This document shows positions 21,228 to 39,875 of a DNA stretch of 39,875 nt, one piece after another. The position numbers and the translations under genes were made by a program. Each line of letters starts with the position of its first letter. Position 1 is the first letter of the stretch. Under the pieces are notes generated by a model. The model made no database searches. It was not told the DNA's origin and was given only the letters and a program-made list of their open reading frames with translations. Source of the DNA: a virus; the IMG/VR virus record IMGVR_UViG_3300045256_000138, positions 1 through 39,875 of that record. One strand, written 5' to 3'.

Positions 21228-24122
21228 TTAACTTATAAGCCTACCGAATTCATCGAAGCGTTGGACGCTGGATTTCACTTTCTTTCGCGCCTCTTGCTTT
21301 GCGAGCACATATGCAAGTTCAGCCTCAGGCGTCAGGCCTTGCCCTTGCGGCGCCGTCTCACGTAACGATTCGTAGCGGAGAGGTTCGGGGATAGCTGCCT
21401 CAATCTGCTCGTTCCTGTTCAAAGGCGCGGCGTGTAAGGCGAATTGCGCGAGGACGCCCCGGGATGAATCAACAGCGTCATCGTCAATCTTGTTTTGCCC
21501 GGTGTGAAACTGGGAATAGAGCGGGATTTCAAAGCGCAGTCGCGCAAACCCGCTGGAATCCTTGGCGCCTCTTACTCGCAACTGTCCATACGCATCGCAG
21601 TAGAGTTCACCCTGCCCATCAGGAACTACGAGGATAAACCGCGTGTAACCCATCACCGGCTCGCCTGCCTTCGGGTGTCCAGGCGGATAGATGCGGAACG
21701 GGTGTGGACGCTTCGGATTTACATCCATCAGGTTCTGCATCGCCGGTACGCCGCTCCCGCGTTGCGCTTTCCATTTACGGAAAAACACCTGCTCGCCTTT
21801 GGGCAGATCAAGAATGAAGGCGTTAAGCGCGGCGCTCGCTTCGTGCGACATCACGGAGAGCTTTATTTGCCCATCCAGGATGTTATTCATTGCGCGCCAG
21901 GCTCGAATCGCCCGCGCAACACCTCCAGGGCTGACGACCTCTGCAATCTCCGTCGCGTTATAGGGGAAATGCGGCAGGACAACTTCGCCGATACCGAGAA
22001 CGACATCATCGAAAGGATATCGCTGATCGGGCCGGGTCCATGCCGTATATGCCGAGGGATGGGCGCGTGTTGTATTACCTGTAATGGTAATCTGCCCATT
22101 GTGCCGAGCAATCACCGCGCCCTCTTTAACGCTCGGACACCAAACGTTATGCAATCCCGGCAATGATGTAATTTCAGGTTTTTGCAACGTCCTATGACGC
22201 AACAAGGGCACTCGATTGGACTTGCCCCACTGACTTTGATGCTCTCGCTCAAGGCCAAGCCGAATGCCGGAGAGAGTAGCCAGAATCTGAAACGCGTCCA
22301 TTACTGGGCCGCGCTTCTGACAGAAGACCGCCTTGCGCAATGTCCCATTATTCGTCCCTTCCGCAGCGAGCATCGCGTTTAACATCGCCTCGCGCGCAGC
22401 GCCTGATAAGCGAGTAACCAAAGCGGGCAAGCTTTCTTTACCTTTGTAACCAGTCGCTTCACACAGACGGGCCATTGACTCAACGCCTAAATAAAACAAG
22501 CGAGTCCCGTTTGCGCTTGGCTTCAACTCTTTCCATCTCAGCCCTGACGCCTCTAAATCGGCAATCACAGCATCGGGATAATTCTTTTGACACAGAATAC
22601 CCGCTTTATCCTGCTCCCATCCGTCAGTAACCAGCCAGCCCAGAACCGCAGCCATCGCGGGCGAACACTGAATAACGGGCTCTTCATAGCAATTCGCCGC
22701 CAGGACCAGAACAGTTTGCGCATGGTTAAAACTGATCTCGTTTAAGTTTTGACGCTTGTAAGTATCGCGCGTCATCCGTTCACGCTTTTTTCTCTTTACA
22801 ATCCAAGCGTGATCCGGGGTACAAACAAAACGGAACGACTTGCGACGCATCTCAACCAACGGCTGATCATTCTTGTAAACCTTCTTCAATAAAGGCGACC
22901 AGACAATCTCACGTTTATTTTCCCAATCGTATGCCGCGACTTCTTCGCCTTCGATCAGTTGATCGTGCGTTTTCCAACCTTCCCTAGTCAGTATTTCGGT
23001 ATCAAGAGTCAAGCAACCCCAGTCTAACCCGTCCGCTACTTCCCACCGCTCAGGCCAGCGGATGCGGCCGTTGACGATCTGCAGATCGGCCCCCGCTCGC
23101 TTGAAGCCCGCGGCGACTTCCGACACTGTGCAGACGTGATAAATCTCGTCATAGCCCAGGAAGTCATTCCCTTCATCAATCAACGCAACATTGTGTTGGC
23201 ACTCGCGTTCAAAGCCGAATTTACCGAAGCGCGCCAGAAGCCGTTCGCAATGCTTGAGGTCTACCGCCGGGTCAACCGTCTCACCGGCTACAATCCGCCA
23301 TCGGTAACTGCCGTCTTCCAGGTATTCCTTTTCGGCGTCGTACCATTTCAGCAGCGGATTCGGGCCGTCGAAGATCCGATCGGTCAGAATGTCCGCCCGC
23401 TGGTCAAGAACCTGCGCGCAGATCGAATCTCTGTGAATCAGATTCTGCGGGAAGATGACGTTGGCGATTTCGGCGCCCGCCGGCAGGATATCGTTACGCA
23501 GGATTTCAAGTTTCTTCTGCGTCAGTTCGCGGGAATCCTTCAGCGTGTCGATGTCGTCCATCACCAAGAGGTCCGGGCGTTCATTCTCTTCGGATTTGAA
23601 GCCGCGAGAACTGCCGAGCAGCCAGATCGCTTCGACCACCGCGCCGTCCGCCGTCACGAGTCGCTGCCGGGACCAGTTTGTGAGGGCGTTGCGCGTTTTC
23701 TCAGCTCGCGGTCGCAACTGCGGGTAGTCGCGAAGCACCGCCTCTGTTTCGAGCCGCCGCTTGATCCCCGCCAGGTGCTTTTCAGCCTGATTTTCCGTGC
23801 CGCTCAAATACAGCACGTAGCGGATGCGCCGGCGCGCGAGGAGGTAAACAATCAAAGATTCGGCGTTTGTCGACTTGCCTAAGCCGCGCGGGTCGCAGAT
23901 GACGTATGGCCGCCGTTGGACGCCAGGCTCGAGCGCATCACCCCATTCCCAGAACTTGGTTTGGCTTACCGTGAACGGGCGCGAGAAATCGCGCGGGAAG
24001 TAGCGGCGGAGCCAGCTTTGCCAGCCTTCGGATTCAATCTCCGCCGGGTCACGCATTAACCGGCTGAACGATTGCGCCGATGCGTTAATGTCAATGGCCA
24101 GCGCAAGGCTTAGCTGATCCAT
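21228..24122 (-). CDS. Terminase large subunit, interrupted by an intein
   Basis: A 964-residue precursor that would splice to about 650 residues. ATG 24122 is preferred (13-nt overlap with the small subunit); an ATG at 24155 is also possible. The ATPase part has the Walker A loop CDPRGLGKST (residues 76-85) and Walker B LLVMDDID (185-192). The nuclease part begins at GLDWG, with D367 the likely first metal ligand of the RNase H-like fold, and further Asp residues follow near the C-terminus (NKIDDDAVDSSRG). This enzyme cuts phage DNA and pumps it through the portal. The intein occupies residues 370-683, directly after that Gly, so nuclease activity needs splicing. The outer parts rejoin as ...GLDWG-TTRAHPSAYT. 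Confidence 0.9.
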   Translation of the reverse strand: MDQLSLALAIDINASAQSFSRLMRDPAEIESEGWQSWLRRYFPRDFSRPFTVSQTKFWEWGDALEPGVQRRPYVICDPRGLGKSTNAESLIVYLLARRRIRYVLYLSGTENQAEKHLAGIKRRLETEAVLRDYPQLRPRAEKTRNALTNWSRQRLVTADGAVVEAIWLLGSSRGFKSEENERPDLLVMDDIDTLKDSRELTQKKLEILRNDILPAGAEIANVIFPQNLIHRDSICAQVLDQRADILTDRIFDGPNPLLKWYDAEKEYLEDGSYRWRIVAGETVDPAVDLKHCERLLARFGKFGFERECQHNVALIDEGNDFLGYDEIYHVCTVSEVAAGFKRAGADLQIVNGRIRWPERWEVADGLDWGCLTLDTEILTREGWKTHDQLIEGEEVAAYDWENKREIVWSPLLKKVYKNDQPLVEMRRKSFRFVCTPDHAWIVKRKKRERMTRDTYKRQNLNEISFNHAQTVLVLAANCYEEPVIQCSPAMAAVLGWLVTDGWEQDKAGILCQKNYPDAVIADLEASGLRWKELKPSANGTRLFYLGVESMARLCEATGYKGKESLPALVTRLSGAAREAMLNAMLAAEGTNNGTLRKAVFCQKRGPVMDAFQILATLSGIRLGLEREHQSQWGKSNRVPLLRHRTLQKPEITSLPGLHNVWCPSVKEGAVIARHNGQITITGNTTRAHPSAYTAWTRPDQRYPFDDVVLGIGEVVLPHFPYNATEIAEVVSPGGVARAIRAWRAMNNILDGQIKLSVMSHEASAALNAFILDLPKGEQVFFRKWKAQRGSGVPAMQNLMDVNPKRPHPFRIYPPGHPKAGEPVMGYTRFILVVPDGQGELYCDAYGQLRVRGAKDSSGFARLRFEIPLYSQFHTGQNKIDDDAVDSSRGVLAQFALHAAPLNRNEQIEAAIPEPLRYESLRETAPQGQGLTPEAELAYVLAKQEARKKVKSSVQRFDEFGRLIS
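22074..23015 (-). other. Intein with LAGLIDADG homing endonuclease, mixed class 1/class 3 signature
   Basis: 314 residues inside the large terminase, Cys1 (codon 23013-23015) to Asn314 (22074-22076), followed by Thr+1. Block A is CLTLDTEIL, block B CTPDHAW with T66 and H69, block G ITITGN. The penultimate residue is Gly, not the usual His. Trp71 in block B (position B:12), Cys293 in block F (VWCPSV; F:4) and Thr312 (G:5) make up the Trp-Cys-Thr triplet that defines class 3 inteins, yet Cys1 of class 1 is also present. Two LAGLIDADG-like motifs, LGWLVTDG (about 125-132) and AMLAAEG (about 214-220), indicate a homing endonuclease. Reading frame is intact. Confidence 0.9.
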
Positions 24123-24787
24123 TGCGCGGCCTGTGGAGTGTGGGCGCGCATCCATTCGAGAGCGTTCGGACGATCGAGGGCCAGTTCATCCATAACACGC
24201 TGCAATTGCGTTTCAGCCCACTCGCGCCGATTCTTCAGGTCAGTCTCGTTCTCTTTCGGCTGCTGTTTCAACCCGTGCAGATCGGCGAGGACGCGGGCGG
24301 CGCCTTGCGCGTCGTGCAATTCGAGTTCGGTCGTGACAATGCGCTCCGTAACACCGTCGTCATGTGTCACTTCGCGGCTATTCGTCTTGATCTTTTTGAC
24401 CAGCCGGGACACGCCGCGTTGCTGCGCAGCTACCAAATCGAGACTGCCATCCGGTTTGAAGCAGTCAGCCAAGTCGGCCAGGTCAGCGCGCAGATGATCA
24501 CCGAGCAGGAAAAGAACTTCATCGGCTGTCGCGGCCATGCCGTCGAGTCGCGCGCGCACGCGCGAGGCAATCTCAGGTTTTCTCAGGTTTTCATAGGCTA
24601 CCTGGGCCAGCGTATGATCGGTTCCCTTATAGCCAGCATCACGCGCAGCTGCTGTGCCGTTACCGCCGTTCGTAAAATAGTGATCAACGAAAGCGTCCTG
24701 CTTCAGTGTAGGTTTACGAGCGGGCTTTTTCTTTGCAGTTTTCTTTGCGGGCTTACGTCCGCTCTTACGTCCATTTATCGCGCTCAT
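24110..24787 (-). CDS. Terminase small subunit
   Basis: A 225-residue protein. ATG 24787 overlaps the upstream stop as ATGA with GAGGG just before it. The first 28 residues are Lys/Arg/Ala-rich and flexible. Residues about 29-75 carry the helix-turn-helix style of Terminase_2 proteins (LKQDAFVDHYFTNGGNGTAA, then ARDAGYKG), and NLRKPEIASRVRARLDGM follows the usual 'V-A-x-x-I' helix. The C-terminal part is helical (LELHDAQGAARVLADLHGL). It recognises viral DNA and directs the large subunit encoded immediately downstream, with which it overlaps. Confidence 0.85.
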   Translation of the reverse strand: MSAINGRKSGRKPAKKTAKKKPARKPTLKQDAFVDHYFTNGGNGTAAARDAGYKGTDHTLAQVAYENLRKPEIASRVRARLDGMAATADEVLFLLGDHLRADLADLADCFKPDGSLDLVAAQQRGVSRLVKKIKTNSREVTHDDGVTERIVTTELELHDAQGAARVLADLHGLKQQPKENETDLKNRREWAETQLQRVMDELALDRPNALEWMRAHTPQAAQWIS

Positions 24788-27074: not shown

Positions 27075-30000
27075 TCAATGCCGTCGCCTTCTTACAGGCA
27101 GAATGATTTTCTTTTTGTCATAGTCGTTCCGACGCGCTTTTTCATTCTCCCACATATCCTCCTTGCTTTCTTTAGGAGAACCGATGTTTAACCATAAGAA
27201 ATAGTTATACAATCGATTTTCCATGTCTCGCCTGCGTGAATACAGAAATGCCCAGTTGAAGCCTTGTGAATTCGAAAATAAATCTTCGGGGCTAAAAGCG
27301 CTTGCGCCGAAGCCGATCGTGGCATTGTGGTAGTTAATATCGTCTTGATTCGATTTCGCGATTATCTCTAAGGCCTCAGGAGACAATTGATCGGTCAAGT
27401 AATCCCATATCGCTTTTCTGACATTAGTTTTCACCTTCGCGAGTCCTTGAACCACCTCTACGCCCAGCCCCAACATAGCAGTTTCAAGCGCGCCGTCTCC
27501 TACAGATGTCCCCGTTATTATGGAACCAGATCCCTCTGCGGTGTTAGCAGCCGCAGCGAAAAAGTGGTTAAGGTCTATCGTCCGGCCCAGCGTACGCGAG
27601 TACGCATATCCTTCGTGCGAAGCAAAATGGTCAGCGAGCGCCCGTAAAATTTTAGCATTGCGATCACCTCGCACCATAATTGGCACGCCATTGATCACAT
27701 GCTGTACTTCCCGTCGCAAATCTCTTTCGGTCCGATATCTGTTGCGCAACGGCTTCATCCCATCAGGATCAACATGCGATGTGGGCTGATTGCGCACATA
27801 GGAATAGCGATTCCATCCCTGCGGCCTACCAATCTGCGACGCTGCGTCCAGCGGATCGACGCTGACGAATCGCCCGATGATGTTGTTATAGTACCGTGCG
27901 CCAAAATAATCCAGCCCGGTTTCTCCGTCGTGATACTGCCCGGTGAAACCCTTGCTTGAAATCGAAGCCACCGGGTAGCCGCGGTTTATTGTGCGCACAC
28001 CGACGCCCGAAAGCAGTTCTTCCCCAAACGGCAGATAATCGTGCCGCTGCATACCGGCGCCGCCGCTCAAATCGCCCCACCAGTCGACGAACATCCGGGG
28101 CGTACCGAGCACGTCGTTCACTACCCACTTAATGTTCTCAGCGAATTCCGCGTAAATAAGCAACTGACCGTCTTTGTAACCGTACTCCTTGCGCGGCGCG
28201 GTCGCCACGGTGTTGTAATTGTACTCGGCCAGCAGTTCACCGCCGATGCCGTAGATATACCAGGTCTCGGCTGATGCTGTGCGCTTGCGGGCGCGCTTGC
28301 CGATCGTGTCGTAGACGTAATCCACCTGGCCGCCATCGTACGATCGTGTCAGCCGACTGTGCCCATCGAATTGCCGGTTGGCCGATCCGCCCGTCGTCGT
28401 GTAACTGTCATAGATCATGTTTCCGGCGTTATCATAGGTGATCGTTCCGGTCTGACCGGACGGCACGGCGACGCGGTTGTTGGTTTTGTTGATGTCGACC
28501 GCCTTCTTGTTGATCGATCCAGTGCTGTTCGTGGCGTCAATCCGGCGATTGCCGAATTTATCGTACAGGTAGATCTGCTTGAAGGCCTGGGTGTTTGAAT
28601 AGGCGCCGCTGATCCAGGTTTCGGAGAACTCTTGGACGTATTCAAGACGATTGAACGCGTCGTAATTGTAATACTGAGTGGCCATCACCCAATCGGACAC
28701 GGCGTTGTCGAGCGGAATGAAGTGCTCGGCGCGCCAAAGATTGCCATTGTTGTTTGTGCCGCCGTCGCCCCAGGCGTAATTGCTCGCGTAGTAATAGCGC
28801 AAAGCGCCTCGGTTCCAGCCCCACTCATCCGTCGAGCTCGTGCCCAACCGAATGTCATAGTTCTGAAGCCGGTTGTTGTAATGACGGTTCAGATAGAGCG
28901 CCGTGTTTGTCGGCCATGATTCGCGCAACGGCTGCCCGGCTGGGTTGTAGGTAATGGCCGTGATGTAATTGCTTTGACTGCCGTTGAGGTTCCCGTTCAT
29001 CGTGGCGACGCGGCCCGCCTGGTCAAACGTCGTGTTCACCGTGCGGCCTGACGGGTACTTGACCTGCGTAACCTGTCCCGCCAGATTGTAGGTCTGCTCG
29101 ACGGCATAGGACCGTTGATACACGCCCGAGGTGTTCGAGAGCGATGTGGTCTGTTTCTTCACCCGACCGAATGGGTCGTAAGTATCAACCACCAGCTTGC
29201 TATAAGCCGGGCCGTCGCCGGGAATCGAACTGAAATTCTCGGCGTAATCCAAGCGTCCTTTACCGTACGCTAGACCGGGACGGTCATAGTGATACGCTAC
29301 AGGAAGATCGGATGAGCTATCATCCCCGTAGCCGAGAAGGCGGTTGATGTCGTCATAGCCAAAGTAGGTCACGACGCTGCGCGGGTCCGTCTTCGTAAGG
29401 ACATTGCCGTTCTCGTCGTACGTGATGGTGTTTGACCAGGAATTATTACCACTCACGGCATCGGTGATCGAGTGCGGCGCCGATTGCTCAGGCACTCTGG
29501 TTGCCTTTAATCGCCCGAGCCCGTCATAAAGCCAGTAGCGATTCTGCGTGTCTGCGCCGTCCACCTGCGTAGACTTCACCAGCTTGTCAAAAACGTTGTA
29601 GACATAAGTGGTTGTCGTTTCCGCCGCGCCGCCGGGGTCTGATACCGCAGACGTTGCGCGCCCTAGACCGTCCGCAACAATTTTGTTCTTTTTTGACGCC
29701 GGGTCTTGAACCGTCGTAGCGTTCCCGCTGTAAGTGACCGTGCTGGTGGCGCCGTCTGGTGTCTCGGTTGAGATTACGCGCCCCAAACCGTCGAAGCTGA
29801 TCGTCGTCCATGTTCCGCTCGGTGTGCTCGCAGTGTCGTAGTTCGTGGAACGGTATGGGTTGGACGTTCGATAGGCGCGCCCTAGGCCGTCATATTCGGT
29901 GTCGACGATGCTCCAATTGCTGCTGCCTTCGCTCTTCGCTGCTCGAATTGTACGGCCGAGGCCGTCCCATTTGCTTGCCGATTTCAGATTCTTGTCGTCA

Positions 30001-32354
30001 CTGGCGGTCTGGTCTGTCTCAACGATCAGCTTTCGGTTAGCGTCGTCATGTGTGTAGAAAATCTGCATCTGCGCCGGCAATCCGACCGCGCTGATTTGTT
30101 TGGTAACGCGATCAAGAGCATCAGCATAATAGGTGCTGATTACCACGCCATTCGCGTCCTGAGCGTCCACAGTCTGGCCAAGATAATAATCGAACTGCTT
30201 GAACGATTCGTGACCGACGGCATTAGTGGCCTTCGTCGGGAAAGCAAAGGTATGTTGGCCGGAAGCTAATTCTGAAGGCTGCGTATGCGTTGTCGCGTCC
30301 CCATTTGGACCGCCGAAGTTGTCGGTAAAGTCGAAATCCGTCACTTTCCCGCGCGGATCTACGAGCTTGACGAGGTTGCCGGCGATGTCGAATTGCGAGC
30401 TTGTGACAACCGTGGAACCGCCGACAACGATGTGGCGAGTAACGGACGTGGCATTGCCGCGCTTCTGATAGCTCGTCGTAAAGCTTGAGTCAAATTGGAC
30501 GATTCCAGAGCGATCCACGAGACCATACATACTGTAATTGTCATAGTCGAAGACCGTGCGCGCCCGCTCCGTGCCGCCGGCATCGTAGACAGACACCTGC
30601 ACAGGCAAATTGCGGATGTGGATGCTGGTGTCGGTCGCATAATTGACGCTACTCTGATTAGGATTGGTGGTCAGATAAGTCGTTGCGGTACGGCGCAACA
30701 ATGAACCAGGTGAGCCGGAGCCCCAATCGAATTCGTCCTTCTGAATAATGTTATTGTAAGCGTCGCTTGAATATGTGTACTCCTCTTTCGTGACCAAGTT
30801 CGGGCTGACATCGTGCAATGTGGTGGTCACCCGAACGAGGCGCGGGTCAAAACTCGCCGTTCGCGTGCCCCAAGTGTAAGTGACGCGCGGCTCCCAGTCG
30901 TTGTCCATAGTACGCAGAAGTGTGGAGGATCCGGAATAGAACTCAACTTTATCCTCCAGATTGTCACTCCAAGTGGAATAGCCGACCGGGTCATTCGCAA
31001 AAGTTATGTTGGCGGTGGGATCACCGAAGAAATAATGCTTCTCGCTGGCGATGACCGTCGTCGTTCCGGGTTGCAGGCGCTCGACCACAGTCGGAGAACT
31101 TGCGCCACTGCGGCTATAACTCGTTTCCTCTACTGGTGTTGTTGCGCTGGTACTGGTGTATGCGCGACGCTTGGATATGCGGCGGTGAATACCGGCCGAT
31201 CCTGGCATCGCGCCGGATGACGTTGCCCCATAGCCAGCTTCCCAGTCGTATTCAATCCTTCCGCCTGTGGGCAGGTCGACGCGCGCAAGTTCTCCATAAT
31301 TGTTATACCAAAGGCGGTATTCGTGAGTCTGACCCGTGTCGGCAGGAAATGTGATGCTAGTCGGGCCACCTGCCCCAATGTCTTGATTCGGATATTGCAG
31401 CGCACTGATTTGTGGGAAAGCGGTGCTATAAGTGAAGGGCGAAAAGTCCGGGCGCAGCCAGGTCGACCCCAGAGAAATCGTGACCGATCGACTCGCGCCC
31501 TGATAGCCTTTCCAACTGACCGTGGTCGTGCTGCCGCTGACCGAGACGGTGTAGACGCGGTTTAGCGCGTCTGTAATTTGCGTAAGCTGGTCGCCGCTAT
31601 ATTGAAAGGTGATCTTATTACCATTCCGGTCACGAATGGACTCTACGTTACCAGCAACTATGCGGTAGCGTGTTCCATCCTTCATCATCAGATTGCCCGT
31701 TGGTCTTCCAATGGAATAAGAGGCAAAATCAGAAATCGCCGAGTCGCTGACAAAAGTCATCGCGGATCCATCCGTGGAATACCAAGTGTTTCCGCGCGAA
31801 AACCCGGTGGTGCAGCTACCGTTCGTCCCTTTAGGTTGCCCGTTATAGATCGCGTCAACGAATTGCGTCTCCGACCCATCCGCGCTGAAGAAAGAGAGGC
31901 GCGTCAGCATCGTGTCAAAAGCACTGTCGGCCCCCTGACACCCTTGTATATCTTGGCCTGCATGGCGCGAAAGCATATAGCCCGGCGTGATGGACGTATT
32001 CCGCCCAGTCCAGTTCGTGTCATCTAAGTAATAACGATAATCGTAAATGCAGTCTGGCGCGCAATTGACGACATATTGCTCTCTGTCAACCGTCCAGCGC
32101 TTCTCAATGTTCTGATACAGAGTGACGCCAGCGGCGCCGCGGCCGCCTATTGTCAAAACCGGCAGGCTGAAATGGAGCGAGCCGGTAGCCAGGTTGATGC
32201 GTTCAAAACCTGAAAGCGGCAGCCCTCCGGGCGCGTCTCCCCGGCTTAATCCTGAAGGCGTGTACCCATCATACGGTTTCTGCATTTGAGCCGTCGCAAC
32301 GAACGGCAACAAAGCGCACAACAACAATGCAATGATTGGAGATTGTCGTTTCAT
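27075..32354 (-). CDS. Secreted RHS-repeat protein with unique C-terminal domain
   Basis: A 1759-residue protein. ATG 32354 is chosen because GGAAAGGAA lies just upstream and a signal peptide follows (IIALLLCALLPFVATAQ). After the signal, the region YDGYTPSGLSRGDAPGGLPL and GFERINLATGSLHFSLPVL is the form used by acidobacterial RHS proteins. YD-repeats (YDGLGR, YDNAGN) run to about residue 1490, forming a hollow beta-shell, then the RHS core GRFVSVDP and HVDPDGM (about 1487-1533). The final 226 residues (27075-27755) are unrelated, include SPEDLFSNSQG, and end in RRRRH. RHS proteins often deliver such variable tips as toxins. The Sec-type signal and phage location are unusual. No catalytic motif seen in the tip. 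Confidence 0.9.
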   Translation of the reverse strand: MKRQSPIIALLLCALLPFVATAQMQKPYDGYTPSGLSRGDAPGGLPLSGFERINLATGSLHFSLPVLTIGGRGAAGVTLYQNIEKRWTVDREQYVVNCAPDCIYDYRYYLDDTNWTGRNTSITPGYMLSRHAGQDIQGCQGADSAFDTMLTRLSFFSADGSETQFVDAIYNGQPKGTNGSCTTGFSRGNTWYSTDGSAMTFVSDSAISDFASYSIGRPTGNLMMKDGTRYRIVAGNVESIRDRNGNKITFQYSGDQLTQITDALNRVYTVSVSGSTTTVSWKGYQGASRSVTISLGSTWLRPDFSPFTYSTAFPQISALQYPNQDIGAGGPTSITFPADTGQTHEYRLWYNNYGELARVDLPTGGRIEYDWEAGYGATSSGAMPGSAGIHRRISKRRAYTSTSATTPVEETSYSRSGASSPTVVERLQPGTTTVIASEKHYFFGDPTANITFANDPVGYSTWSDNLEDKVEFYSGSSTLLRTMDNDWEPRVTYTWGTRTASFDPRLVRVTTTLHDVSPNLVTKEEYTYSSDAYNNIIQKDEFDWGSGSPGSLLRRTATTYLTTNPNQSSVNYATDTSIHIRNLPVQVSVYDAGGTERARTVFDYDNYSMYGLVDRSGIVQFDSSFTTSYQKRGNATSVTRHIVVGGSTVVTSSQFDIAGNLVKLVDPRGKVTDFDFTDNFGGPNGDATTHTQPSELASGQHTFAFPTKATNAVGHESFKQFDYYLGQTVDAQDANGVVISTYYADALDRVTKQISAVGLPAQMQIFYTHDDANRKLIVETDQTASDDKNLKSASKWDGLGRTIRAAKSEGSSNWSIVDTEYDGLGRAYRTSNPYRSTNYDTASTPSGTWTTISFDGLGRVISTETPDGATSTVTYSGNATTVQDPASKKNKIVADGLGRATSAVSDPGGAAETTTTYVYNVFDKLVKSTQVDGADTQNRYWLYDGLGRLKATRVPEQSAPHSITDAVSGNNSWSNTITYDENGNVLTKTDPRSVVTYFGYDDINRLLGYGDDSSSDLPVAYHYDRPGLAYGKGRLDYAENFSSIPGDGPAYSKLVVDTYDPFGRVKKQTTSLSNTSGVYQRSYAVEQTYNLAGQVTQVKYPSGRTVNTTFDQAGRVATMNGNLNGSQSNYITAITYNPAGQPLRESWPTNTALYLNRHYNNRLQNYDIRLGTSSTDEWGWNRGALRYYYASNYAWGDGGTNNNGNLWRAEHFIPLDNAVSDWVMATQYYNYDAFNRLEYVQEFSETWISGAYSNTQAFKQIYLYDKFGNRRIDATNSTGSINKKAVDINKTNNRVAVPSGQTGTITYDNAGNMIYDSYTTTGGSANRQFDGHSRLTRSYDGGQVDYVYDTIGKRARKRTASAETWYIYGIGGELLAEYNYNTVATAPRKEYGYKDGQLLIYAEFAENIKWVVNDVLGTPRMFVDWWGDLSGGAGMQRHDYLPFGEELLSGVGVRTINRGYPVASISSKGFTGQYHDGETGLDYFGARYYNNIIGRFVSVDPLDAASQIGRPQGWNRYSYVRNQPTSHVDPDGMKPLRNRYRTERDLRREVQHVINGVPIMVRGDRNAKILRALADHFASHEGYAYSRTLGRTIDLNHFFAAAANTAEGSGSIITGTSVGDGALETAMLGLGVEVVQGLAKVKTNVRKAIWDYLTDQLSPEALEIIAKSNQDDINYHNATIGFGASAFSPEDLFSNSQGFNWAFLYSRRRDMENRLYNYFLWLNIGSPKESKEDMWENEKARRNDYDKKKIILPVRRRRH

Positions 32355-32388
32355 AGTTTCCTTTCCTGATTGTGGATCACCTACTTTT

Positions 32389-32398
32389 AGGCTACAAA
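32389..32398 (-). promoter_or_regulatory. Repeated motif AGRCTACARA, copy 3
   Basis: Plus-strand AGGCTACAAA, 34 nt upstream of the RHS start at 32354 and next to the terminator of the preceding operon. It is well placed to begin a separate RHS transcript. Function unproven. Confidence 0.5.
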
Positions 32399-32406
32399 CG
32401 AAATCC

Positions 32407-32436
32407 AAAAAAAAGAGACAGGCGCAACGCCGTCCC
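32407..32436 (-). terminator. Rho-independent terminator ending the early operon
   Basis: On the minus strand, GGGACGGCG pairs with CGCCTGTCTC (one bulged base) with a 3-nt loop and is followed by eight T residues (plus A 32407-32414). It starts directly after the stop at 32437. It separates the replication operon from the RHS gene. Confidence 0.9.
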
Positions 32437-34572: not shown

Positions 34573-35498
34573 TCGTTCCATAAAACGGCCTGTGCGGCTT
34601 TAACATCAGGTTCCCGATAAAACTGAGACTGGCGCAGGTTCGCAAGATGATTGACCCACCAAGACACATTGCACCGCCATTTTCCGCACGCGACGCGCAC
34701 ACCGGCCTTTTCTTTGTTCTTCCACGTGCAATTGAGAATCGGCGCGGATGAATCGGTCGAGAGTCGCAAGCCGTGCTCATCGCACAACCAGAGCAAAGGC
34801 GCTAAAGCGGGTTCATATAAAACGCCGAAGATGTGGACGCGAATCACCCCGGCCGCGGCGATCAGCGGAATGCACCGAGTGATTGTTCGTAAAAACGTTG
34901 GCATCCATCTCTTGAACCGCCCCAAGATGCACCATCCGCCGAGGCCGATCCAATCGTCAACGGTGGCCACCTTCAACACTTCAGCAACGCATTCCGCATA
35001 TTGCGCGTCATCAACCCCTTGGCAAGCTAAAACCAAATCCCGCGGGTAAAGCTCGCGCTGGCGCGCGGCGAGGTAGTGAGCGGCTTCGATGGTTTCGCGC
35101 ACGGCGCTTTCGGCCATTTGCACAGTCCAGCGCCGCTTGAACTTCTGCCCGTCCACCCAGGTTTCGTCAATCAGCCGGTCATAGCTTACCAGCGCGCTGG
35201 CTTTCCATTCGCCACCCCATTTTTCGCTGGCCCGTTTCTCCCAGGCCAATTGACGTTCCAGCGATTGCTCAGGCGTCAAACGTTCCTCCGGCGGATCCGT
35301 GAACGCGCCGGAATCGAGTAAGCCGTCAATCTCGTTGGTGTCCATCTTGCAGACCTGCGGACGATGCGCAGCTGAGAAGCAACGCGCGCCGGTCAGGTCC
35401 TGCGCCTCACCCTGAACGCGGGATGCGTGGCTACCAACAAACAATTTCACCGCTGGAGAGGGTAGGTAGATCATGAGTAGTCCAAAAAGAGGCGTCAT
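34566..35498 (-). CDS. DpdA-like tRNA-guanine-transglycosylase family protein
   Basis: A 310-residue protein. ATG 35498 overlaps the upstream stop as ATGA; ATG 35474 is also possible. The TGT-superfamily frame is clear: LDSGAF (residues 61-66) matches the catalytic DSGGF/Y motif, LTPEQSLERQL the following helix, ACQG (158-161) the QG motif, GLGGWC (185-190) the substrate-glycine motif, and STDSSAP (247-253) the position of the second catalytic Asp. TGT relatives of this short phage type (DpdA) place 7-deazaguanine bases into DNA instead of tRNA, guarding it from restriction. There are no queuosine-precursor genes in the window, so a precursor would have to come from the host or other phage genes. 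DpdA function is inferred from family style. Confidence 0.65.
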   Translation of the reverse strand: MTPLFGLLMIYLPSPAVKLFVGSHASRVQGEAQDLTGARCFSAAHRPQVCKMDTNEIDGLLDSGAFTDPPEERLTPEQSLERQLAWEKRASEKWGGEWKASALVSYDRLIDETWVDGQKFKRRWTVQMAESAVRETIEAAHYLAARQRELYPRDLVLACQGVDDAQYAECVAEVLKVATVDDWIGLGGWCILGRFKRWMPTFLRTITRCIPLIAAAGVIRVHIFGVLYEPALAPLLWLCDEHGLRLSTDSSAPILNCTWKNKEKAGVRVACGKWRCNVSWWVNHLANLRQSQFYREPDVKAAQAVLWNDL

Positions 35499-36601
35499 TC
35501 GCAACGGCAAGAAGCCTCTGCAAATAATTCCCGGTATCGCTCGCGCACTGTTTCCGCAGACGTGAAACGCACGGGCAGCCCCGCCAGCACGCCTATTTGC
35601 AACCGCACATCCGCTAACAATTCACACTGGCCAGGATCCGGCACGAATGTTGGCCAGCCTTTGACGAAGCGTAGTTCCGGCGGGATGTGCGCTTCCAACG
35701 CGCGCCGGCGAACAGCCACCGCTTTCGCTCTCTCAATCCCTTCGCGCTCCGCTTCGGTGAGCAGGTCCGGGCGTACATCGCTAAGCCAGCGGGCCGGCTG
35801 GAAACTGAAGCCGCTGGCGATTTCCAGCGCCACAACTCGTCGATAAGCCGCGTGATTTCGCTCATCGCGCAAACTAGCCTGCAGGTCGTGAAGGCTGCTC
35901 AACACACAAACAGAGCAACTGACCCGGGAGTTCCCGTTGACGCGATAAGCGTAATGCAGGGGGAAGCCGGCGCGAACGTGCTCCGCAAAAACATCCTCGA
36001 TAGGCCATTCCAAAATCGGATACCAGTCACGGCCGCCTTTTCCGCCGGCGCGCAGAAGTCTCTTGTTCGGCTGCGAAATCGGCTTCTTGGCCCGACCTGC
36101 CGACTCTTCGCGCCGGATGCCAACCGCATTGATGATCGGCAGGCCGTGAAATCTGACGGCTAACTCGCGCGTGATAGGGGCGACTTTTAACTCAGATGTA
36201 CAGAATCTCATCCCCGCCGAACTCCACGGCGTGATTAGCGTCACACAAGACAGGTTGATATACCGTTCGACGTTGTCGCGCCAGCGCTGTTCCCATCTCT
36301 CAATCATCCCGCCGGATTGCCGGCGCACGACGATCAATTCCAATCCGAGATGCGCGGCCAGGCGTTCGCATTGCGGTAGTGAATCTTTGTGTTCGATCTC
36401 GCCAAGATCCGAGTGAATCAGTACACGCGGCCCCGTGTGACTGATCGCATCAAGGAAGCGAGCCACAGCGAGCGCCGCCGCGTCGGAATCCTTGCCGCCG
36501 CTGGCGCCGATCGCGACCGCCGCGTTTTGGGCGAGTAAATCGGCGGTTTCTGCGTCTATGGCCAGCTTGTATCGCTCAGCCGTGGCGAGAATCTGCGTCA
36601 T
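35495..36601 (-). CDS. PP-loop ATPase of the PAPS-reductase family
   Basis: A 368-residue protein. ATG 36601 is chosen because it overlaps the RusA stop as TAATG and GGGAGG lies 8 nt upstream. The PP-loop SGGKDS (residues 34-39) binds ATP. The block RFCTSELKVAPI (about 132-143) is the CT-x(2)-K-x-x-P motif of PAPS reductase-like adenylating enzymes. CSVC (229-232), with other Cys, could form a metal site. Such proteins adenylate or thiolate a substrate. The gene is directly coupled to the DpdA-like gene, so a joint role in nucleic-acid base modification is a reasonable idea, but phage PAPS-family proteins mostly have no known substrate. Confidence 0.75.
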   Translation of the reverse strand: MTQILATAERYKLAIDAETADLLAQNAAVAIGASGGKDSDAAALAVARFLDAISHTGPRVLIHSDLGEIEHKDSLPQCERLAAHLGLELIVVRRQSGGMIERWEQRWRDNVERYINLSCVTLITPWSSAGMRFCTSELKVAPITRELAVRFHGLPIINAVGIRREESAGRAKKPISQPNKRLLRAGGKGGRDWYPILEWPIEDVFAEHVRAGFPLHYAYRVNGNSRVSCSVCVLSSLHDLQASLRDERNHAAYRRVVALEIASGFSFQPARWLSDVRPDLLTEAEREGIERAKAVAVRRRALEAHIPPELRFVKGWPTFVPDPGQCELLADVRLQIGVLAGLPVRFTSAETVRERYRELFAEASCRCE

Positions 36602-36969
36602 TACTCGACCTCCCACGCAACAAGCTCGATCCGCGGCCGCTGTTTATCCTCAAACCGATAAGCGTGGATCTCGACGATTTGCGAATCGTCTTCCCAGGCC
36701 ACGTTATTAAGTGCGTCAAGCAAGACCTTAAAATTCGCATCAAGATCGCGCGCCTTCCGAGGCCTGAACACCTTGACCTCGACGCCTACAGCGCCGGTCA
36801 ACTGGAACGCTCCTTGGCTGCGGGCGTCGTAGCCCACTGTGGATTTGTACGTTCTGCCTTCCTCGCTGAGCACCACGCGGCCCCTGTAGTTGCGCCAGAG
36901 GCGATTTAAGGCCGGGGGATAGGGCAATGTGAGAGCGACTTGGATTTGTTTTTCTTCTTTACGCGGCAT
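36601..36969 (-). CDS. rusA: RusA-family Holliday junction resolvase
   Basis: A 122-residue protein. ATG 36969 overlaps the upstream gene's end by 11 nt. It matches RusA length and pattern: LTLPYPPALNRLWRN at the start and the signature DLDANFKVLLDALNNVAWED (residues 75-94), which supplies the acidic metal ligands (D75, D77, and the later WEDD) together with the Lys. The enzyme cuts Holliday junctions made during phage replication or recombination and helps resolve branched DNA before packaging. Neighbouring genes are nucleases and a helicase, consistent with this role. The next gene is coupled through TAATG. Confidence 0.9.
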   Translation of the reverse strand: MPRKEEKQIQVALTLPYPPALNRLWRNYRGRVVLSEEGRTYKSTVGYDARSQGAFQLTGAVGVEVKVFRPRKARDLDANFKVLLDALNNVAWEDDSQIVEIHAYRFEDKQRPRIELVAWEVE

Positions 36970-37842: not shown

Positions 37843-38919
37843 TTAATCTTCAACTGCAGCAACAGTCCGCTTTACCTGCTCGAAACTGGTCCTTCGATAA
37901 TTCGCCACGGCGATATAAAGCGACCCGCTCATTTTCACCGCTAATCGAATGCCGTACCGGTCTACTTCAGGCATGACGCCTTGCCTTTCCACCTCTACGG
38001 CCAGCAAGAGCGCATCCGATCCGGGCGCAAGCTTCGCTTTATACCGCTCCCATTCCGATTTACGTCGCCTGCGTTCTTCTTCGTTGCGATGCGCTTGCGC
38101 AAACACCTCCTGTCGCTGTCTCTCAAGATTAACAGCCTCTTCGCGCCGCCACTGGGCATCGCGCACTCGCTTAAGTTGTATCTCTTCCTCGACCCGGCGC
38201 GCCCGCTCCGCTTCTTCTTCGCGCTGCCGTTGCGCCGCGATCTCTTGCCGCCGCGCCCATTCCACCGCGCACGGCTCGCAATACCGTGGCGGTTCGGGAT
38301 AGGTAACGCCCGCGCCTACGGCATCAATCGAAAGAATGTCCGCTGCTTCAATATGCTTGAAACAGTGACCGAGTAATAAGCTTGTCGCCGCCGCCTCGAA
38401 CCACTTCAGCGACGCGGCGGCTAAATCCCTCTTCTTTTCGATACCCACGGCGTGCGTGTGGCAAACTTCAGCGGCGCCGACTACATCAGCGCCTTTCACG
38501 CAACTGACATCAGGGCGCCGACCCGCGACTTTTAATTCCGGTTTCGCATAGTCGTACCCTTCGATCCTAAAAAACGAATACCAGTTCCTGCAAAGCACGC
38601 ACTGATAAACCAGCGACGCGCGATGAAATTGATTCAGCTTTTGCGATAAAAACACCTTCGCGTTCAAATGCGTGGCGGATTCACCGCTGCGGCTGATCAC
38701 GCAGTCAGCGTCAACATCATGCCGGAAGTGGTCAGCGATCTTATGCTCAGGCGGTTTGGCTAAAACAATAACCACACCAGCCTCGCACTCAGGGCAAGTT
38801 AAATCCGTCGGGCGCCCTTTAGTCGTACCGCGCAAATGATCGAATGATCGAATACCCACCAAATCATCGCCGCGCTTAGCGTATCTCAGTTTCACTTGTG
38901 AGAAATCTATATCTACCAT
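37843..38919 (-). CDS. CoiA-like nuclease with zinc finger and coiled coil
   Basis: A 358-residue protein. ATG 38919 is chosen because AGAGGAGG lies just upstream and it overlaps the helicase stop. It has the CoiA layout: CPEC (C42/C45) and HFRH (64-67) make a zinc-binding N-terminus, then E80-x(3)-H84-x(3)-K88 (ESATHLNAK), a second CxxC (C107/C110), RRPDV (134-138) and AEVCHTH (150-156), which together give the PD-(D/E)xK-like nuclease core. Residues about 230-305 are a charged coiled coil (RQREEEAERARRVEEEIQLK). CoiA proteins in bacteria act in competence; phage versions probably process recombining DNA. Its neighbours are other nucleases. Confidence 0.7.
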   Translation of the reverse strand: MVDIDFSQVKLRYAKRGDDLVGIRSFDHLRGTTKGRPTDLTCPECEAGVVIVLAKPPEHKIADHFRHDVDADCVISRSGESATHLNAKVFLSQKLNQFHRASLVYQCVLCRNWYSFFRIEGYDYAKPELKVAGRRPDVSCVKGADVVGAAEVCHTHAVGIEKKRDLAAASLKWFEAAATSLLLGHCFKHIEAADILSIDAVGAGVTYPEPPRYCEPCAVEWARRQEIAAQRQREEEAERARRVEEEIQLKRVRDAQWRREEAVNLERQRQEVFAQAHRNEEERRRRKSEWERYKAKLAPGSDALLLAVEVERQGVMPEVDRYGIRLAVKMSGSLYIAVANYRRTSFEQVKRTVAAVED

Positions 38920-39875
38920 CCCGCCTCCTCTGCAATATCCCCCCAATTAGCCGCCGCAGGCTTTCGGGATTGCTTGCTGCGCCCATTGCCGTTGCTGTTC
39001 GTCGCGCGATCATGATCAGGCTCGAAGGCTCGATACGTTCCGATATCGGCGACTTCGAAACGCGACCGGTCCCCGAAAAACACCATCGGAATTTGCACGT
39101 CAGATTTACCGCCGCGTTGCGCGGCGATGTCCAGAATCCGGCGATTGTCGCCCAGGTCGTGAGCGTCTTCGCGCTGGATAAAAATCACCACGTCGCTGTC
39201 TTGCTCAATTGATCCACTCTGGCGCAGATCGCTCAGCCTCAGCTTGGCGTCCGACCGATCCGCGAATTTGCGATTAACCTGACTTAGGCCGATAACCGGC
39301 AAATCAAACCCCTTGCTGATGCGCTTCAATTCGCGCGTAACCTGACTAACGCGCGCCGTGTCGTTCTGGGTAAAGCCGTCCGCATCGCATAGTTGGATGT
39401 AGTCAACTACGAGCAGGTCAATTCGCTTGTGAATACGCTTCACCTTCCGCACAAGCGCTTTCATCGTCGCCGGCGTGACGGCTTCAAAGCCTTCCAGGTA
39501 CTCAATCGGCATTGAGGCGATAGCATCTCTCGCGATCCTAACGCGATCTTTTTCACCATCGGTTAATGAGCCAGTCAGTAAATCATCCAGCGAGACTTTC
39601 GCGAACGCAGCCAGCGCGCGCTCCGTTAATTCGTCTACCGACATTTCGAGCGAGATGAACAACACAACGGGCTTTCCTTGCGCCGTCTGGTTTTCGGTTA
39701 TGACGTTATGAACCAGGTTAAGAGCAAGCGTTGTCTTGCCGACCTTCGGCGGCGCCGCCAGCACGTGAAATCGTGGACGAAGGCCGTAAATAGCCCTATC
39801 TAGCGGAGCGTAGCCGGTCTTTAAGCCAAGCGTCTGCGTTGGGCTTTGCCAGGTTTCTTCGAGGCGTTGCAAAAC
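38913..39875 (-). CDS. dnaB: DnaB-type replicative helicase, N-terminus cut by window edge
   Basis: The frame is open to the right edge, so the start lies beyond it; a TTG at 39872 is the only visible candidate and is unlikely to be real. The RecA-like C-terminal domain is complete: Walker A APPKVGKTT (residues about 40-48 from the TTG), Walker B LLVVDYIQL (153-161), then RVSQVTRELKRISKGFDLPV, the QVNRK sensor region, SGSIEQDSDVVIFIQRE, and an arginine-finger-type block QRGGKSDVQIPMVF. The N-terminal primase-interaction domain is not in the window. It unwinds phage DNA at the fork. The stop overlaps the CoiA-like start by 7 nt. Confidence 0.9.
   Translation of the reverse strand, partial: VLQRLEETWQSPTQTLGLKTGYAPLDRAIYGLRPRFHVLAAPPKVGKTTLALNLVHNVITENQTAQGKPVVLFISLEMSVDELTERALAAFAKVSLDDLLTGSLTDGEKDRVRIARDAIASMPIEYLEGFEAVTPATMKALVRKVKRIHKRIDLLVVDYIQLCDADGFTQNDTARVSQVTRELKRISKGFDLPVIGLSQVNRKFADRSDAKLRLSDLRQSGSIEQDSDVVIFIQREDAHDLGDNRRILDIAAQRGGKSDVQIPMVFFGDRSRFEVADIGTYRAFEPDHDRATNSNGNGRSKQSRKPAAANWGDIAEEAGW

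What the first reader, a model, noticed from the sequence alone, without database searches (positions are those of the whole stretch)
22074..23015. Terminase intein combining Cys1 with the class 3 Trp-Cys-Thr triplet
The 314-residue intein has Cys1 (class 1) and also W71 (B:12), C293 (F:4) and T312 (G:5), the noncontiguous triplet that defines class 3 splicing. A few published inteins with such a mix splice by the class 3 route, which is thought to come from phages. The penultimate residue is Gly. It sits directly after GLDWG, the first metal-ligand site of the nuclease, so packaging nuclease activity depends on splicing.
Basis: partly seen in the sequence, partly recalled or inferred. Interest (0 to 1): 0.75.

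Follow-up and report, generated by a model that had tools for sequence, protein, structure and literature searches.

The report
Two-cysteine intein in phage packaging enzyme
A phage DNA-packaging enzyme is interrupted by a self-removing protein segment (an intein) that carries two potential starting cysteines; this mix turns out to be common in one large intein family, so the segment is probably removed in the ordinary way, but a distant relative in that family has lost the first cysteine and is known to start from the second.

Summary
Window 22074-23015 (minus strand) encodes a 314-aa intein in a phage large terminase (TerL), with Cys1, W71 (B:12), C293 (F:4), T312 (G:5), G313 and N314, placed directly after GLDWG. 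An inteinless relative (GLDWG|TT) and a 66%-identical intein at the same site confirm the boundaries.

The class 3 reading is not supported. The intein belongs to a large family (called 'gn' here) with Cys1, Cys at F:4 and penultimate Gly. Among 207 non-redundant members, residue 1 is Cys in 204 and Ser in 2, with one parsing error. Trp at B:12 (20/207) and Thr at G:5 (99/207) vary. Cys1 plus the full Trp-Cys-Thr triplet therefore occurs in about 10% and is not class-diagnostic. With those columns masked or removed, the intein scores 72-79 bits to gn and 28 to canonical class 3, and sits in gn in the tree. The AU test does not formally reject a class 3 placement (p 0.10-0.19).

Most likely it splices by class 1, through Cys1, with C293 assisting.

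One unexpected link: AceL NrdHF, a biochemically proven but atypical class 3 intein, scores as a gn member that lost Cys1. Class 3 chemistry may thus have arisen twice.

The parts
21228..24155 (-). Large terminase (TerL) precursor ORF, 975 aa, with intein
   Evidence: PHROG phrog_38 terminase large subunit E=5.7e-27 over the ATPase part
23016..24155 (-). N-extein: ATPase domain (Walker A CDPRGLGKST, Walker B LLVMDDID) up to GLDWG
   Evidence: translation; PHROG match
23016..23030 (-). GLDWG, motif I of the RuvC-like nuclease with its first Asp, directly before the intein
   Evidence: conserved in L001 (GFDWG) and inteinless L012 (GLDWG|TT); nuclease role from knowledge of TerL folds
22074..23015 (-). 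Intein, 314 aa, with LAGLIDADG homing endonuclease
23013..23015 (-). Cys1 (A:1), expected nucleophile
   Evidence: Cys in 204 and Ser in 2 of 207 family members
22803..22820 (-). Block B T66-P-D-H69-A-W71: TxxH (class 1-like) plus Trp at B:12
22617..22646 (-). First LAGLIDADG motif VLGWLVTDGW (D131)
   Evidence: sequence; helix 129-141 of the model (construct numbering, +10)
22356..22382 (-). Second LAGLIDADG motif LNAMLAAEG (E219)
   Evidence: sequence; helix 215-229 of the model (construct numbering, +10)
22137..22139 (-). Cys293 (F:4)
22074..22082 (-). Block G end T312-G313-N314: Thr at G:5, penultimate Gly, terminal Asn
21228..22073 (-). C-extein: rest of nuclease domain, +1 Thr, with conserved MSHEASAA and KIDDDxVD motifs

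Best explanation
This is a mobile, LAGLIDADG-bearing phage intein of a large family ('gn': Cys1, Cys at F:4, penultimate Gly, C-end C-x10-R-x-N-G-x5-G-N) inserted beside motif I of the TerL nuclease domain. It most likely splices by the class 1 route: H69 with T66 strains the N-terminal bond, Cys1 forms the linear thioester, Thr+1 takes the N-extein over, Asn314 cyclises with Gly313 in place of the usual His, and the exteins join to give GLDWG-TTRAHPSA. Cys293 sits where class 1 inteins usually have Asp and probably assists by acid/base or hydrogen-bond help, T312 braces H69, and W71 packs the core. Shown here: boundaries, residue columns, family membership by profile, conservation pattern, fold prediction. 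Inferred: every chemical step, endonuclease activity, and that the nuclease is inactive before splicing.
For: Residue 1 is Cys in 204 and Ser in 2 of 207 non-redundant family members (the remaining one is out of register by one residue), in samples not selected on residue 1; Trp B:12 is found in 20 and Thr G:5 in 99. In a sample not selected on F:4, about 100 of 103 have Cys there and the 3 exceptions (Asp, Asp, Ser) keep Cys1. A profile search of actinobacterial genomes, not tied to the C-end motif, gave 10 cleanly parsed members, all with Cys1. With class-diagnostic positions masked the intein scores gn 72-79 bits, canonical class 3 28, canonical class 1 5.6. Tree without those columns: gn one side of a branch (98/91; 100/96), class 3 another (100/99; 100/98). 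B:7 is Thr/Ser in 206 of 207, the class 1 TxxH feature (PMC7891396). The RDF-type intein, a gn member (90.6 bits vs 11.6 for class 3; 317 aa with Gly316 as in the tested Bethlehem gp51 intein), splices fully, and changing its penultimate Gly to His slows it strongly (PMC5050341), so penultimate Gly is compatible with efficient splicing.
Against: No Cys1 member of the family has, in the papers I could read, been tested for a need of Cys1; the RDF intein was called class 1 by sequence only. Cys at F:4 is almost as strictly kept as Cys1, which a plain assisting role does not obviously demand. AceL NrdHF, which scores as a gn member, uses its F:4 Cys as the nucleophile (PMC7891396). The AU test does not exclude a tree with this intein inside class 3 (p 0.191 and 0.103).
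Confidence: 0.72

Rival explanations
1. Relay: Cys1 forms the first thioester, the acyl group moves to Cys293 (block F branched intermediate) and then to Thr+1, so both cysteines are needed in sequence; a two-cysteine hybrid of class 1 and class 3.
For: Both cysteines are near-invariant in the family. The AceL NrdHF relative shows that F:4 Cys in this family can carry the N-extein (PMC7891396). The G316H mutant of the RDF intein accumulates an intramolecular disulfide-bonded precursor (PMC5050341), which could, but need not, be Cys1 to F:4 Cys.
Against: Three members replace F:4 Cys by Asp or Ser and keep Cys1 (L307, L338, L295), so the relay would not be obligatory across the family. No intermediate has been seen.
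Confidence: 0.15
2. Class 3: Cys293 attacks the N-terminal bond directly and Cys1 is a bystander.
For: Full Trp-Cys-Thr triplet in the right columns; the masked profile score is nearer class 3 (28 bits) than canonical class 1 (5.6); AU test not significant; AceL NrdHF precedent.
Against: A bystander Cys1 would drift, as residue 1 does in canonical class 3 (Ala, Pro, Ser, Met, Asp in 11 examples); here it is invariant. Trp and Thr, near-invariant in class 3 (about 95%, PMC7891396), are free in this family. Canonical class 3 has penultimate His, absent here.
Confidence: 0.1
3. The intein no longer splices and TerL is a pseudogene.
For: An inactive class 3 intein has been described (PMC3196547).
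Against: The frame is open, all catalytic residues are intact, the fold prediction is confident, and the exteins keep TerL motifs shared with L001 and L012.
Confidence: 0.03

Closest known systems
Mycobacteriophage RDF-type intein (Bethlehem gp51; here PhrostyMug gp50, L418)
   Same: Same family by profile (90.6 bits), Cys1, His B:10, Cys F:4, Thr G:5, penultimate Gly, LAGLIDADG; the Bethlehem copy is shown to splice (PMC5050341)
   Different: Val at B:12 instead of Trp; inserted in a metallophosphoesterase, not TerL
AceL NrdHF split intein (PDB 6zgq; recovered in L383)
   Same: Scores with the gn family (59.8 bits vs 8.5 for class 3); Cys F:4, Thr G:5, penultimate Gly, Asn
   Different: Ala1, Met at B:12, split, GIY-YIG gene between halves; class 3 mechanism proven (PMC7891396)
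Canonical class 3 inteins (MP-Be type L345, Catera gp206 type L346, M. smegmatis DnaBi1)
   Same: Trp B:12, Cys F:4, Thr G:5, His B:10, phage distribution
   Different: Residue 1 not Cys, penultimate His, no TxxH, separate branch (100/99)
Canonical class 1 inteins (Cys1, Asp F:4, penultimate His)
   Same: Cys1, TxxH in block B, terminal Asn, Cys/Ser/Thr +1
   Different: Asp instead of Cys at F:4, His instead of Gly at G:6, distant in profile score (5.6 bits)
Cys1 Trp-Cys-Thr inteins in phage DNA polymerases (KIL, A150; L007, L004) and actinobacterial chromosomes (junction WADIGY|C...TGN|SFMACP)
   Same: Same combination of Cys1, Trp, Cys, Thr and penultimate Gly
   Different: Other host proteins and insertion sites

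Membership tests
Class 3 intein | Trp B:12, Cys F:4, Thr G:5 in the right columns | tested here: met
Class 3 intein | No N-terminal Cys (operational definition of PMC7891396) | tested here: not met
   Cys1 present
Class 3 intein | Falls in the monophyletic class 3 clade | tested here: inconclusive
   Best tree puts it outside (98/91 and 100/96 for the split), but AU p 0.191 and 0.103; masked profile 28 vs 72-79 bits
Class 3 intein | Penultimate His (11 of 11 canonical examples here) | tested here: not met
   Gly313
Class 3 intein | Splicing starts at Cys F:4 and does not need residue 1 | not testable with these tools
   needs C1 and C293 mutants
Class 1 intein | Cys, Ser or Thr at position 1 | tested here: met
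   Cys1; near-invariant in the family
Class 1 intein | TxxH in block B | tested here: met
   T66-P-D-H69; Thr/Ser in 206 of 207 relatives
Class 1 intein | Linear thioester at Cys1 is required | not testable with these tools
   needs C1A and thiol-trapping assay
gn family (Cys1, F:4 Cys, penultimate Gly; name used here only) | C-x10-R-x-N-G-x5-G-N C-end, Cys1 and His B:10 | tested here: met

The most novel reading that the evidence does not exclude
The gn family splices by a two-cysteine relay (Cys1, then Cys F:4, then +1), making it a living intermediate between class 1 and class 3, and class 3 chemistry has arisen at least twice: once in the canonical Trp-Cys-Thr/His-Asn clade and once in AceL NrdHF by loss of Cys1 from a gn ancestor.
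Probability: 0.15. Interest if true: 0.7.

Novelty: new member of a known kind. Interest (0 to 1): 0.35.

Why it matters
The Trp-Cys-Thr triplet is used to call class 3 inteins from sequence, and one paper states it is found only in class 3 (PMC7664689). The triplet is common in Cys1 inteins of a separate large family, so it should not be used alone. The link from that family to AceL NrdHF questions the view that class 3 arose once (PMC4031507), and gives a concrete set of double-Cys inteins in which the class 1 to class 3 step can be tested with single mutations.

Tried and rejected
Single-protein Pfam, PDB and PHROG scans did not detect the intein itself. Profile searches for loci with a 9-sequence alignment failed for lack of conserved stretches; motif patterns were used instead. 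An apparent Ala1 member (L100) was rejected as a parsing error, because its frame holds two similar inteins or intein fragments in tandem. A same-site argument linking AceL NrdHF to the phiTE NrdB intein was dropped: both lie in E-x-x-H motifs but different ones (FSE|TIHS vs RDE|SMHV). Trp-Thr coupling in the family (20 of 20 Trp members have Thr, Fisher p about 1e-7 ignoring kinship) could not be shown once kinship was counted (about 5 changes of Trp, 1 supported independent pair). The 2011 paper that defined class 3 distribution (PMC3133030) is not held, so its own list of mixed cases was not read. Recent transfer of the intein: it is more conserved than its exteins to L001 (66% vs 47-49%), but codon identity at shared residues is equal (about 40%), so no recent transfer is shown.

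Full report
Observation. The 975-aa ORF at 21228-24155 (minus strand) matches phage terminase large subunits (phrog_38, E=5.7e-27). Its residues 381-694 are an intein, window 22074-23015, with Cys1, W71, C293, T312, G313 and N314 as reported. The window is the whole of a 39,875-base virus record. Only one close intein relative was found in the IMG/VR scans: L001, 66% identical, in a TerL at the same site, GFDWG|C...GN|S, with the same key residues. L012 is a TerL relative without an intein, GLDWG|TTLGHP, which fixes the insertion point between Gly and +1 Thr.

Anatomy. Block B reads T66-P-D-H69-A-W71. Two LAGLIDADG motifs (VLGWLVTDGW with D131, LNAMLAAEG with E219) keep both acidic residues. 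An AlphaFold model of the intein with ten extein residues on each side is confident (mean pLDDT 91.7, pTM 0.90) and its best matches in the PDB are intein-endonucleases TliVMA, PI-SceI and PhoVMA. The intein follows GLDWG, which by its pattern and conservation is motif I of the RuvC-like nuclease domain; the C-extein holds the conserved MSHEASAA and KIDDDxVD stretches. Seven mycobacteriophage terminase insertion sites in the literature all lie in the ATPase domain (PMC5050341), so this site differs from those. Another frame in the sample has an intein one residue further on in what looks like the same motif (VDWGG|TNPHAV, L309/L311).

Family. Relatives in known phages score 22-27% identity over the full length, in DNA polymerases, methyltransferases, portal proteins and TerL, and several combine Cys1 with Trp B:12, Cys F:4 and Thr G:5. 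To measure this, two C-end DNA patterns were scanned. The first (W-C-x10-R-x-N-G-x5-G-N) is free at residue 1, B:12 and G:5. The second (R-R-N-G-K-x4-G-N) is also free at F:4. Together they gave 207 non-redundant inteins. Residue 1: Cys 204, Ser 2, and one misregistered by one residue. His B:10 is in all. B:7: Thr/Ser in 206. B:12: Met 89, Val 44, Ile 22, Trp 20, others. G:5: Thr 99, Ser 33, Cys 24, Gln 18, others. In the F:4-free sample of 103, 88 have Cys at the exact spacing, 12 have it with a slightly longer spacing, and 3 have Asp, Asp or Ser with Cys1 kept. A profile search of 198 actinobacterial genomes, not tied to the C-end pattern, found 10 cleanly parsed members, all with Cys1, most with the full triplet. 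Limits: sampling rests on C-end motifs, so members with other C-ends are under-represented, and residue 1 was placed by profile alignment.

Class 3 comparison. Eleven canonical class 3 inteins were taken from phage records, including the TerL intein of phage Violet (Pro1, the Bethlehem type) and an exonuclease intein of phage Sauce (Ser1, the Catera gp206 type); matching these two to the tested inteins rests on my knowledge of those inteins. The seed used to find them was written from memory and checked against PDB 6rix and 6bs8. Their residue 1 is Ala, Pro, Ser, Met or Asp, with Trp-Cys-Thr (one has Asn at B:12) and penultimate His. Thirteen canonical class 1 inteins came from genomes. In a tree without residue 1, B:12, F:4 and the last three columns, gn, class 1 and class 3 separate (gn 98/91, class 3 100/99), with this intein inside gn; a second tree agrees. 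Holding this intein with class 3 costs 9.9-14.0 log units, but AU p is 0.191 and 0.103, so it is not formally rejected. Profile scores discriminate better: masked, this intein scores 72-79 bits to gn, 28 to class 3 and 5.6 to class 1, while left-out class 3 members score 125-167 bits to class 3 and 13-23 to gn.

AceL NrdHF. The gn profile found, as its best PDB match, AceL NrdHF (6zgq, E=4.6e-8), and did not list the canonical class 3 structures at E<=1. The full gene was found in IMG/VR (L383): 98+48 residues with H68, M70, C124, T144, G145, N146, in agreement with the paper. It scores 59.8 bits to gn, 8.5 to class 3 and 2.7 to class 1, and falls in gn in the trees, on a long branch; the AU test does not reject a place with class 3 (p 0.167 and 0.308). 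It lacks Cys1 and uses F:4 Cys as nucleophile (PMC7891396). The simplest reading is a gn intein that lost Cys1. This would make class 3 chemistry arise twice, against the single-origin view (PMC4031507).

Mechanism. Near-invariant Cys1 and drifting Trp and Thr point to class 1 with an assisting Cys at F:4, a residue known as the second commonest at that position (PMC4031507). The RDF-type gn intein splices completely and worsens when its penultimate Gly becomes His (PMC5050341). The near-invariance of F:4 Cys, together with AceL, leaves room for a relay through F:4. No chemical step was tested here.

Verdict. A real, well-described observation whose special claim fails: Cys1 with Trp-Cys-Thr is common in this family and does not by itself indicate class 3. 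The link to AceL NrdHF is the part worth following.

Noticed in passing
L383:3001-4643 (AceL NrdHF) against the gn family: A biochemically proven, atypical class 3 split intein scores as a member of the Cys1/F:4-Cys/penultimate-Gly family, suggesting a second origin of class 3 chemistry.
   Followed up: partly
L388-L397 (actinobacterial chromosomes): Most of these carry Cys1 plus Trp-Cys-Thr plus penultimate Gly at one recurrent junction, WADIGY|C...TGN|SFMACP, probably in a ribonucleotide reductase.
   Followed up: partly
L295, L307, L338: Three family members have Ser or Asp instead of Cys at F:4 and keep Cys1; natural variants useful for testing the role of F:4.
   Followed up: no
L252, L312: Two family members start with Ser1 and keep Cys at F:4.
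   Followed up: no
window 22803-22805 and 22080-22082 (W71, T312), and the family sample of 207: All 20 sampled members with Trp at B:12 have Thr at G:5; significance is lost when kinship is counted.
   Followed up: partly
L100, L132: Single open frames that seem to hold two inteins or intein fragments of this family one after the other.
   Followed up: no
window 27075-32408 (-): A 1777-aa protein with RHS repeats (PF05593, E=6.9e-18) in the phage record.
   Followed up: no
window 35495-36616 (-): PAPS-reductase-like protein (PF01507; phrog_424 E=1.7e-22).
   Followed up: no
window 38913-39872 (-): DnaB-like helicase C-terminal domain (PF03796, E=9.6e-58) at the end of the record.
   Followed up: no
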